Below, in pieces: positions 10,112 through 12,328 of a stretch of 20,386 nucleotides of DNA. The notes below the pieces were generated by a model. That model ran no database searches. It was not told where the DNA came from and saw only the letters and a list, made by a program, of their open reading frames with translations. Position 1 is the first letter of the stretch. The number at the start of each line of letters is the position of its first letter. Made by a program: the position numbers and the translations under genes. This DNA comes from a virus. The DNA lies in IMG/VR virus record IMGVR_UViG_3300032117_000188, positions 1 to 20,386 of that record; one strand, written 5' to 3'.

Positions 10112-12328
10112 TTAGGCTGCAATTCTGCAGGAGAGTTCAGGGTACAAAGGCGCCCATCCGTACAACACATCTAAACGTGTTGGTATGGAATCGTTGTTAA
10201 TCGTGTACTGCATCTTGTTACTCCTAGTATTTCTACTAGTGGTGAAACCTCTTCGGATTTCACTCTAGGTCTTCTTTTGTTATAACCTAGTTCAGACTAT
10301 CGCATCTCCCTTGGGAGTTTTCTCACTTAGTCGTTCAGGCTGTATTTAAACTTGCCCCTTGTTGTCTGCTGCCAGAGTTCCAAGTCAATCAGAGAAAATT
10401 TTCTATTAGGTCTTTACCTAAAAGCCGCCAACATTAACGGACTACACGCATTGACAAACCAATTTCCTTATCACTAGCTCTACCTGCAAAATGCACACCT
10501 TCTGGAAGCTCTAAATCGGCTCATTTCTGTTACTTTCGGCTTTCGCCTACTGACCACTTTTGTGGCGGGAGAAACTCTTCGGATTCTCCTCTCTGCCTTC
10601 AATTCAGTTATAGCAGAGTTCAGACTATCGCATCAGCTTTCGCTGCCATCCCACTTAGTCGTTCAGCCTGCACGACCTTTTGGTCTGCTTGGCCCTTGTT
10701 AACCTCTTCAGGCACTCCAAGTCAATCAGGGACAGTTTTCTACTTACGCTGCTTGTAAGTAGCCGCAGTCATTTACGGCAAGAGTAAAGGCATTCCTGTG
10801 CATCATGATATTTTGTGGAGACAAAGTACCTGTGTTGTTGAAAGGTGTTACTACGGCTGTAGTTGAAGTAGAACCAATCACGATTGTGTTTTGGAACTGA
10901 CCACCAACGATAATTGCAGGAGAAACTTGAATGTTTGTTGCGCCTGTTCCTACTGTTGTAGTAGTTGTAACAACAAAATTACGCAGTTTGCCTGAACCAT
11001 ATGCTTGGCGGTTTTGTGGGTTAGTTGCATAGAGACCGGCAATTTGGATCACGTCACCAGCGTTCAATGTGCTTGAAGCAGATGCTTTGATCTGAATTGT
11101 GGAATACTGTGCCCAACCACTTGTCAAATAACCAACTTGTGCAGTTGTGTCAGCAGACAATGTGTTACCAGAGTATGAACCAAAAGTTTGGCTTACCACG
11201 TTTTGGTCAAGTTTCCAGTTTGTACCAGCTGAATCACGACCCATCAAACCTTTCCTGTATTGCTCCGCAATCGCTTCTTGGGGCATGAACAAACCTTTTA
11301 AGCTGTCAACGATTGTTGCAGATGTGAAAGGCTCAACGATACATGATCTACGTCCGTCTCTTGGTGCGCCTTCAGAATCAAGATAAGCACCAGCTGTTAA
11401 GTAGGTGATTAATCCTGTTGGAGGAGTACCAGCAACACCAACGATGTTCGCTGTGTTGAGAGCAGCAACGCTCAGACCATCTCTGTCAATCTTGTTCGCA
11501 ATAGCTGCAACTGCAGGCTTGAGAACACGATCAGAGAACATATCGAGTGATAGAGCCAAGTCTTGTGTAGTAAACTGGGTATCAACGTGGAACTGAGTTG
11601 ACAATGTAACGGGAACTGATGTCTCGTTAAAGTCTTCTACGTTCAATGCTGGGCCAGTTGTTCCTACAAATCTTCCAGGTCTCATTCTGTTACTTTCACC
11701 TTTCGGCTACTGACCATTTCTGGCGGTTCAAGCTCTTCGGCTCAAACTCTGCAATTTCTTTTGGTTATATGCAGTTCAGACTATCGCATCCCTTTCGGGG
11801 TTTCTCACTTAGTCGTTCAGGCTGTATTTAAACTTGCCCCTTGTTACCCACTTCTGGGACTCCAAGTCAATCAGAGAAACTTTTACGTCCGCACACCTGT
11901 ACTTTTTACGGACGTTAACTGTGTTGCCAATCTTGGCGCCTCAAATACACAGTTAAGCTGAGACAGGCATTTATATCACAGCAAATTGGTCATCATAATT
12001 GCGATCTACTTCTGAAGTGAAAGTTACATTCTGTTACTTTAGTGACCTATTTCTAGGCGGGAAAACCTCTTCGGATTTTCCTCTGCCCCTTCTTGGGTTA
12101 TAGGGCAGTTCAGACTATCGCATCACCCTATTTCTAGGGGCTTTCTCACTTAGTCGTTCAGGGTGTCTTTCGACTTCCCCCTTGTTGTCCACTTCTGGAG
12201 TTCCAAGTCAATCAGAGAAAGTTATTCAATATGCGTTACCGCATAAGGGAGCAAACTGTTTACTCGTTTTCGAGAACCATCAAGGCTTCATTAGTAATTT
12301 TACTAATCGTTAGTAAATTATTACTCAT
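10112..12328 (-). CDS. Major coat protein (P22 gp5 type), split by four group I introns
   Basis: Five exons are read on the minus strand: 12328-12262, 12026-11908, 11682-10775, 10521-10437, 10210-10112. The first begins at an ATG with an AAGGAAA site. Joined, they give one frame of 425 codons plus stop, or about 413-414 residues without a stop-containing 36-nt stretch in exon 2; P22 coat has 430. Exon 1 reads MSNNLLTISKITNEALMVL, typical of the family. Exon 2 supplies TSEVDRNYDDQFAV and GAKIGNTVNVR. Exon 3 runs from RPGRFVGTTGPALNVEDF to MMHRNAFTLAV. Exon 4 gives ADLELPEGVHFAGRASD and exon 5 QYTINNDSIPTRLDVLYGW. Codons split by introns are restored exactly (T|TA Leu, GT|A Val). The exon 3 ORF alone, with its apparent ATG inside the 3' end of an intron, is not the whole gene. 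The protein forms the icosahedral shell on the scaffold encoded just upstream. Confidence 0.93.
10211..10436 (-). ncRNA. Group I intron D (coat gene, fourth)
   Basis: A 226-nt ORF-less intron. The 5' exon ends CCGU, pairing with the internal guide GCGG so that U.G marks the splice site, and the intron ends GTAACAAGATG before CAG TAC. P10 can form between CAGTA of the next exon and TGTTG before the guide. It has a P2 hairpin TTAGGT-aaag-ACCTAA, P7 strands in CTGAACGACTAAG and GATGCGATAGTCTG, a P8 hairpin CTCC-caa-GGAG, a P9-type stem TAGGT/ACCTA, and later stems GTGAAATC/GGTTTCAC and CTAGT/ACTAG. The same helices are kept with different bases in the other three introns. Splicing joins Arg (CGT) to Gln (CAG). 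Confidence 0.9.
10522..10774 (-). ncRNA. Group I intron C (coat gene, third)
   Basis: A 253-nt ORF-less intron. The 5' exon ends GCCGU, pairing with the guide GCGGC, and the intron starts AAATG. It ends GTAACAGAAATG, after which exon 4 starts with A that completes the Val codon GT|A. P2 is CTACTTA/TAAGTAG, a peripheral hairpin is GACC-aaaa-GGTC, P7 uses CTGAACGACTAAG and GATGCGATAGTCTG, P8 is CAGC-gaaa-GCTG, the P9-type stem is CTCTGC/GCAGAG and the last hairpin is CCAC-aaaa-GTGG. Without splicing the coat frame stops at a TAA shortly after the 5' splice site. P10 is weak, about two pairs. Confidence 0.9.
11683..11907 (-). ncRNA. Group I intron B (coat gene, second)
   Basis: A 225-nt ORF-less intron with the best P1 of the set: exon end CGTCCGU pairs over seven positions with the guide GCGGACG, U.G at the splice site. 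It begins AAAAAG and ends GTAACAGAATG, after which exon 3 starts AGA CCT GGA. P10 can form between AGACCT and AGGTGT with one mismatch. P7 uses CTGAACGACTAAG and GATGCGATAGTCTG, P8 is CCC-cgaaa-GGG, the P9-type stem is CTGCA/TGCAG, and the next stems are GTTTGAGC/GCTTGAAC and CCA-gaaa-TGG. Unlike A, C and D it has no evident P2 hairpin. A perfect exonic hairpin directly abuts its P1. Confidence 0.9.
11911..11956 (-). repeat. Perfect 10-bp inverted repeat spanning the insert and coat exon 2
   Basis: TTAACTGTGT, inside the stop-containing stretch, is the exact reverse complement of ACACAGTTAA, which codes for part of Asn-Thr-Val-Asn in the coat. The 22-nt loop contains a second small inverted repeat, GCCA and TGGC. 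The distal arm ends directly at the first base of the P1 helix of intron B, so the two helices could stack. Confidence 0.8.
11941..11976 (-). other. 36-nt stop-containing insertion inside coat exon 2
   Basis: Between GCT GTG (Ala-Val, end of the conserved DDQFAV) and GGC GCC AAG (start of the conserved GAKIG) lie twelve in-frame codons with three stops (TAA, TAA, TGA). Both flanks are in the same frame and fit a P22-type coat, where I expect about one residue between them, so 33 nt are surplus. Removing 33 nt after GAT up to a G would leave Val-Ile-Gly and would fit group I end rules (U before, G last), but no intron core exists here. How the full coat is made across it is unexplained. Confidence 0.85.
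12027..12261 (-). ncRNA. Group I intron A (coat gene, first)
   Basis: A 235-nt ORF-less intron. The exon 1 end GAGU pairs with guide GCUC, and the intron starts AAACAG. It ends GTAACAGAATG, after which exon 2 starts TA, completing a Leu codon (T|TA). P10 can form between AACT of exon 2 and AGTT before the guide. P2 is TATGCG-gtaa-CGCATA, a P5/P6-type hairpin is TCCA-gaag-TGGA, P7 uses CTGAACGACTAAG and GATGCGATAGTCTG, P8 is CCCTA-gaaa-TAGGG, the P9-type stem is CTGCCC/GGGCAG, and later stems are GGAAAA/TTTTCC and CCTA-gaaa-TAGG. Without splicing the coat frame ends at a TAA formed across the 5' splice site after 22 codons. Confidence 0.9.

What the first reader, a model, noticed from the sequence alone, without database searches (positions are those of the whole stretch)
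10112..12328. P22-type coat gene interrupted by four ORF-less group I introns
Seen directly: four related segments of 225-253 nt, each with the same P7 strands, hairpins at the same places with compensatory base changes (P8 CCCTA/TAGGG, CCC/GGG, CAGC/GCTG, CTCC/GGAG; P9-type CTGCCC/GGGCAG, CTGCA/TGCAG, CTCTGC/GCAGAG, TAGGT/ACCTA), a U.G pair at each 5' splice site and a terminal G. Exact joining at the predicted sites restores one P22-type coat frame through split codons. Known: phage group I introns are usually found in DNA-metabolism or lysis genes, and more than one per gene is uncommon. Four in a podovirus coat gene is, as far as I know, not described. An ORF caller reports only the 313-residue middle.
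Basis: partly seen in the sequence, partly recalled or inferred. Interest (0 to 1): 0.92.

Follow-up and report, generated by a model that had tools for sequence, protein, structure and literature searches.

The report
Intron-riddled phage coat gene, core-less mini-intron
A freshwater phage's coat-protein gene is interrupted by four complete self-splicing-type introns plus a fifth, 33-base one that carries only the splice-site guide and no catalytic part, and that probably borrows the ribozyme of the intron next to it.

Summary
The four segments are genuine ORF-less group I introns (235, 225, 253, 226 nt) in a P22-type coat gene. Evidence: exact intron-minus alleles, U.G pairs and terminal UG in every delimited intron, and a P3-P9.1 architecture supported by compensatory changes in 28 of 44 pairs across 43 relatives. 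That 33-mer recurs (32-41 nt) in 46 contigs (22 sequence variants). It follows U, ends UG, and contains an internal guide whose P1 and P10 pairings with both exons covary. A third helix to the 3' exon shows all four Watson-Crick types at one position. It has no room for a catalytic core, and is always followed 34 nt later by the complete intron at site B. Without its removal the coat stops at residue 40-41 in all 39 genes tested; with removal 25 complete genes read through. Best reading: a core-less group I mini-intron excised by the neighbouring core (inferred). Closest known are the 63-75 nt fungal PaSSU-type introns and engineered spliceozymes. The intron family also sits mostly (107 of 120 contigs) in major-head-protein genes. 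No RNA data could be tested.

The parts
12262..12328 (-). coat exon 1 (starts ATG, MSNNLLTISK...ENE+U)
   Evidence: aligned to intron-less homologues
12027..12261 (-). group I intron 1, 235 nt (site S1, coat residue 23); P1 GAGU/GCUC, P7 strands start at 12155 and 12117
   Evidence: nearest relative is the same-site intron of L177; RF00028 E 8.2e-7, below cut-off
11975..12026 (-). coat exon 2a; last 8 nt GCUGUGAU (11982-11975) form the exon strand of P1 of the mini-intron
11942..11974 (-). core-less mini-intron, 33 nt (AUAAAUGCCUGUCUCAGCUUAACUGUGUAUUUG): P10 strand GCCU 11968-11965, IGS GUCUCAGC 11964-11957, helix X 5' strand UUAACUGUG 11956-11948, terminal UG
   Evidence: stops in frame; conserved in 46 contigs; covariation; fold; removal needed for ORF
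11908..11941 (-). 34-nt mini-exon (exon 2b) AGGCGCCAAGAUUGGCAACACAGUUAACGUCCGU; pairs with mini-intron P10 (11941-11938) and helix X (11923-11915); its last 8 nt (11915-11908) are the P1 strand of intron 2
11683..11907 (-). group I intron 2, 225 nt (site B, residue 51); IGS GCGGACGU 11892-11885; P7 strands start at 11814 and 11783; proposed to supply the core for the mini-intron
   Evidence: co-occurrence with the mini-intron 46/46
10775..11682 (-). coat exon 3 (908 nt; most of the 313-aa ORF reported by the ORF caller)
10522..10774 (-). group I intron 3, 253 nt (site S12); P1 GCCGU/GCGGC; P3 UCCC/GGGA
   Evidence: L036/L039/L094/L147 carry the same intron
10437..10521 (-). coat exon 4
10211..10436 (-). 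group I intron 4, 226 nt (site S14); P1 CCGU/GCGG
10112..10210 (-). coat exon 5 and stop
   Evidence: whole joined product (33 nt removed) hits PF11651 1-411, E 5e-32

Best explanation
The locus is a P22-type coat gene whose transcript must lose five segments. Four are complete, ORF-less group I introns, each with its own P1/P10 guide and P3-P9.1 core, which should self-splice by the usual two steps (structure shown here; activity inferred; about 0.95). The fifth is a 33-nt core-less mini-intron. Its own guide pairs with the last 8 nt of the 5' exon (P1, U.G at the cut) and the first 4 nt of the 3' exon (P10). A third helix (X) pairs its 3' half with the 34-nt mini-exon and presents the 3' splice site, UG|AGG, in a loop (pairings shown by covariation). 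It is removed at the RNA level (inferred; about 0.85). Because it has no G-binding core, and is always followed 34 nt downstream by the complete intron at site B, that intron's core probably binds the mini-intron's P1 and terminal G and excises it, before its own P1 docks or in trans after excision: one ribozyme, two excisions (about 0.55).
For: Complete introns: exact empty sites in homologues; 98.2% of cells paired, 28 of 44 pairs with changes on both sides, 0/500 shuffles, slid controls 40-45%; U.G P1 in 103/103 and terminal UG in 112/112 delimited introns. Mini-intron: 46 contigs, 22 variants, all with the site-B intron start 34 nt downstream; no contig with the mini-intron but B removed; lengths 32-41 nt, not all multiples of 3. 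P1 covaries at two positions; P10 and helix X each have one position with four pair types; 0, 4 and 0 of 5000 shuffles reach the observed pairing. 17 of 18 variants fold alike. Removal gives 410-424 aa coat in 25 complete genes; leaving it stops the coat at 40-41 aa in 39 of 39. L236 has both mini-intron and site-B intron precisely absent, with 1,020 nt identical to L140 upstream and identity continuing to 72 nt past the site-B 3' splice site.
Against: No RNA or activity data. The mini-intron and site-B intron are only 34 nt apart, so co-inheritance alone could produce the 46/46 association; nothing shows directly that site B's core does the cutting. L236 could be a DNA allele rather than spliced cDNA (sample type unknown). 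A conserved U.U mismatch lies inside the mini-intron's P1. The variants come mostly from related freshwater phages, and the shuffles ignore relatedness.
Confidence: 0.62

Rival explanations
1. The mini-intron splices by itself, as reported for the 63-75 nt PaSSU-type introns of Phialophora, helped by exon sequence; the site-B intron is only a hitch-hiker.
For: It has P1, P10 and a middle-of-intron x 3'-exon helix, the same set as PaSSU (PMC3160393).
Against: PaSSU-type introns also keep a P7 with a G site. Here all of the insert is used by P1, P10 and helix X, and it is half the size. No mini-intron is found without a core 34 nt away.
Confidence: 0.12
2. The mini-intron is removed in trans by another factor: the core of any other coat intron, or a host or phage protein.
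For: Related cores at other sites share the same UG end and P1 geometry. Some contigs with the mini-intron carry further introns.
Against: Several genes have the mini-intron and site B as their only insertions (for example L102, L140, L187). Coat genes with other introns but not site B never have it.
Confidence: 0.12
3. Ribosomes skip the segment (translational bypassing as in T4 gene 60).
For: A stop codon follows closely, and hairpins flank the segment.
Against: The triplet before the resume codon is UGA in all 18 variants, so no landing codon matches the take-off codon (read directly). Covariation of P10 with the 3' exon is not expected from hopping.
Confidence: 0.05
4. A dead remnant or assembly artefact: these alleles make no coat protein.
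For: Assemblies from metagenomes only; a deletion relic of a fifth intron would look like this at first sight.
Against: 46 contigs from many samples, 22 variants, compensatory changes in three helices, and intact coat frame on both sides in all complete genes.
Confidence: 0.04

Closest known systems
Phage group I introns in capsid or tail genes (mycobacteriophage LittleE capsid, BAKA tail; lactococcal Tuc2009 capsid, cited in PMC3706429)
   Same: Group I-type introns in virion structural genes; U before, G at the end; spliced mRNA shown there by RT-PCR
   Different: One intron per gene there (LittleE's 819 bp with an endonuclease ORF); here four short ORF-less ones plus a core-less one in one gene
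Jug and crAss-like phage group I introns (PMC12363816, PMC7886860)
   Same: Many short (~206 nt) group I introns per genome; splicing of 37 of 76 supported by metatranscriptomes in Jug phages
   Different: Mainly terL, nrdD and polymerase genes there; no core-less member mentioned in the passages read
PaSSU/Arthonia degenerate group I introns, 63-75 nt (PMC3160393)
   Same: P1, P10 and a helix between intron middle and 3' exon (PM), no P3-P6/P8; U.G at the 5' site
   Different: They retain P7 and end in U; fungal rRNA; no neighbouring full intron implicated. Here 32-41 nt, no P7, ends UG, 34 nt upstream of a full intron
Engineered trans-excision ribozymes / spliceozymes (PMC4094466)
   Same: A group I core removes an internal segment from another stretch of RNA and joins the flanks
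   Different: Designed; there the ribozyme recognises the two splice sites itself, whereas here the guide lies in the excised segment

Membership tests
[quoted passage not shown]
   four of four in the window; 103/103 delimited relatives
Group I intron (the four complete introns) | P3/P7 pseudoknotted core with P4-P6 and P8 | tested here: met
   RNAalifold finds P3-P6, P8, P9, P9.1 unsupervised; 28/44 pairs with compensatory changes; P7 invariant, so no covariation for P7 itself
Group I intron (the four complete introns) | terminal G and exact join to the intron-less allele | tested here: met
Group I intron (the four complete introns) | score above the Rfam RF00028 cut-off | tested here: inconclusive
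   26.6 bits vs cut-off 50, E 8.2e-7 for intron 1 only; cmscan silent. A detection threshold, not a defining trait
Group I intron (the four complete introns) | guanosine-initiated self-splicing | not testable with these tools
   no RNA or bench data
Group I intron (33-nt mini-intron) | own catalytic core including P7 | tested here: not met
   nearly all of the 32-41 nt are used by P1, P10, helix X and short linkers; so it is not filed as a group I intron, only as a group I-type splicing substrate
Group I intron (33-nt mini-intron) | P1 with U.G, P10, terminal UG | tested here: met
   18/18 variants; covariation in P1 and P10
PaSSU-type degenerate group I intron | P1, P10, intron-middle x 3'-exon helix | tested here: met
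   definition from PMC3160393
PaSSU-type degenerate group I intron | retained P7 with G site | tested here: not met
   no remaining nucleotides for it
Translational bypass element | matching take-off and landing codons | tested here: not met
   triplet before the resume codon is UGA in 18/18
P22 coat protein | full-length match to PF11651 | tested here: met
   1-411 of 414 aa, E 5e-32

The most novel reading that the evidence does not exclude
A natural non-autonomous group I mini-intron: a 32-41 nt segment carrying only the guide (P1/P10) and the terminal G, excised by the ribozyme core of a neighbouring group I intron, so that one ribozyme makes two excisions around a 34-nt exon. It would be the natural counterpart of engineered trans-excision splicing.
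Probability: 0.52. Interest if true: 0.92.

Novelty: new variant of a known kind. Interest (0 to 1): 0.82.

Why it matters
If right, group I introns can be reduced to a guide plus a terminal G and live off a neighbour's core, a step towards splitting catalyst from substrate of the kind proposed for spliceosome origins. It also means short stop-containing inserts in phage genes can be functional introns, invisible to Rfam and ORF callers. That many freshwater phages route their most abundant protein through up to five excisions raises the question whether splicing times or limits coat production.

Tried and rejected
Rfam cmscan for the introns: silent; replaced by comparative structure. Translational bypass: landing codons do not match. 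Within-gene duplication as source of the four introns: rejected, since each is nearest to same-site introns in other phages. MAFFT alignment of the mini-intron misplaced helix X, so pairs were counted by hand-set registers in a script. Spliced-junction searches for the window's own lineage found none; for the L140 lineage one contig (L236). The sample type of L236 could not be learned. A claim that the mini-intron site equals the site of complete introns L127/L141/L191/L199 was dropped: they sit 3 nt upstream. The automatic splice caller mis-set L102-type, L119, L125, L139, L154, L176 and L188; these were left out of the alignment.

Full report
What is there. The window is a whole IMG/VR record of 20,386 bases, a podovirus-like structural module: terminase, portal, scaffold, coat and tail genes on the minus strand. 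The coat gene runs from 12328 to 10112. Four segments of 235, 225, 253 and 226 nt interrupt it. Homologous coat genes without the inserts (for example L005, L006, L008) give the joins exactly, and the joined product matches P22_CoatProtein over 1-411 (with the extra 33 nt also removed).

The four are group I introns. Among coat-gene relatives found by protein and by intron pattern, 117 introns were called, of which 112 are kept as usable; all 112 end in UG, and 103 of 103 scored have a P1 with U.G of at least 4 bp (some entries are near-duplicates). In 43 non-redundant introns the unsupervised fold gives P3 (7 bp), P4, P5, P6, P8, P9 and P9.1. With the P7 pseudoknot added, 98.2% of cells pair and 28 of 44 pairs show changes on both sides; no shuffle of 500 reaches this, and sliding the partners drops pairing to 40-45%. 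P7 itself never varies. The introns hold no endonuclease-sized ORF (longest open stretch 48-78 codons). In a tree of the cores they cluster by insertion site (17 changes against 31 in shuffles), and each window intron is nearest to same-site introns of other phages, not to its neighbours. They therefore spread between phages site by site rather than by recent duplication within this gene.

After removal of the four, exon 2 still reads VI*MPVSA*LCI*GAKIG. A 33-nt insert lies at 11974-11942. It is not an accident of this contig. A pattern search found 45 further contigs, 22 sequence variants in all, and every one shows the start of the site-B intron (the window's intron 2) 34 nt downstream. Two site-B introns of a different lineage (L175, L181) lack it. 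The insert is 32-41 nt, not always a multiple of three. In 39 of 39 genes that could be scored, leaving it in stops the coat at residue 40 or 41, and removing it gives 410-424 residues in all 25 complete genes (the window and L212 were not scored by that script, the window's product is).

Anatomy of the insert. It follows a U and ends UG, like the complete introns. The last eight exon bases (window GCUGUGAU) pair with an internal guide (GUCUCAGC) with U.G at the cut and one conserved U.U mismatch. The first bases of the 3' exon (AGGC) pair with GCCU just 5' of the guide, which is P10. The 3' half (UUAACUGUG) pairs with the 34-nt exon (CACAGUUAA), helix X. Over 18 variants the exon and guide change together (G-C to A-U; U-A to A-U), P10 shows four pair types at one position, and helix X shows U-A, G-C, A-U and C-G at one position, which is the third base of a valine codon. 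Observed pairing is reached by 0, 4 and 0 of 5000 shuffles for P1, P10 and X. These shuffles ignore relatedness. Energy folding of 17 of the 18 variants gives the same three hairpins, P1, X with the 3' splice site in its loop, and P1 of intron B; for the window alone the excess stability over shuffles is modest (z -2.1). No bases are left for a P7 or any core.

How it most likely works. Shown: the insert must go for coat to be made, and it carries a complete guide for joining the flanks. Inferred: removal is at the RNA level by group I chemistry. Inferred with less certainty: the core is that of intron B. The association is complete, no insert occurs without B in this collection, and B with the insert are the only insertions in several genes. 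But 34 nt is close enough for simple co-inheritance. Engineered group I ribozymes do remove internal segments in trans (PMC4094466), so the chemistry is precedented. One contig, L236, is the same as L140 over 1,020 nt up to the 5' splice site, has the 34-nt exon, continues after B's 3' splice site (identical for 72 nt, about 97% overall), and lacks both segments. It is either spliced cDNA or an intron-minus allele; I could not learn the sample type.

Comparison. Single introns in phage capsid genes are known (PMC3706429), and phages with many short group I introns are known (PMC12363816). Small degenerate group I introns with P1, P10, P7 and a middle helix to the 3' exon are known from fungi (PMC3160393); the mini-intron resembles them but lacks P7 and is about half as long. 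I found no report of a core-less intron paired with a neighbour's core, within an open-access library only.

Wider pattern. 68 are in P22-type coat genes, and 39 more in genes matching four other major-head-protein PHROG families (phrog_1357, 14242, 9953, 1328); the rest include portal, major tail and ribonucleotide reductase genes. Cluster representatives, not every member, were tested against PHROGs. At least 16 distinct insertion points occur in the P22-type coat gene. The counts include near-duplicates. The window, with four introns plus the mini-intron, is the most interrupted gene seen.

Noticed in passing
L119:5924-5945 and L235:564-585: A different coat gene carries an 11-nt frame-breaking insert (GACGAU|CUAUAAACCUG|CAGUUC) 38 nt upstream of a complete intron at another site (CACAGU|). 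Found in two samples (identical over 709 nt). It also follows U and ends UG but has no guide of its own; possibly a second, even smaller case.
   Followed up: partly
L085-L204 (120 pattern contigs): This intron family sits in major-head-protein genes in 107 of 120 contigs, spanning five different PHROG or Pfam head-protein families.
   Followed up: partly
L234 (MW202674.1, 15069-19581): A deposited complete podovirus genome (ctn9Y15, Manatee Spring) has its coat gene annotated as two 'P22 coat protein' CDS plus a hypothetical protein; it is one gene with an unannotated intron.
   Followed up: yes
window 10522-11682 versus 11908-12328: Exon 3 to exon 4 is 94-98% identical to L036/L039 while exons 1 and 2 are only about 82-86% identical, a sign of recombination across the coat gene.
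   Followed up: no
L230, L231, L232, L233: The intron core pattern also occurs in two Burkholderiales MAGs, Kushneria aurantia and a gut Intestinimonas MAG; L231 has a P22-type coat intron, probably phage contigs or prophages.
   Followed up: partly
L109, L157, L180, L204: Several split intron-model hits per contig in the phrog_1357 head-protein cluster suggest several introns per gene there too, some with an insertion near P6.
   Followed up: no
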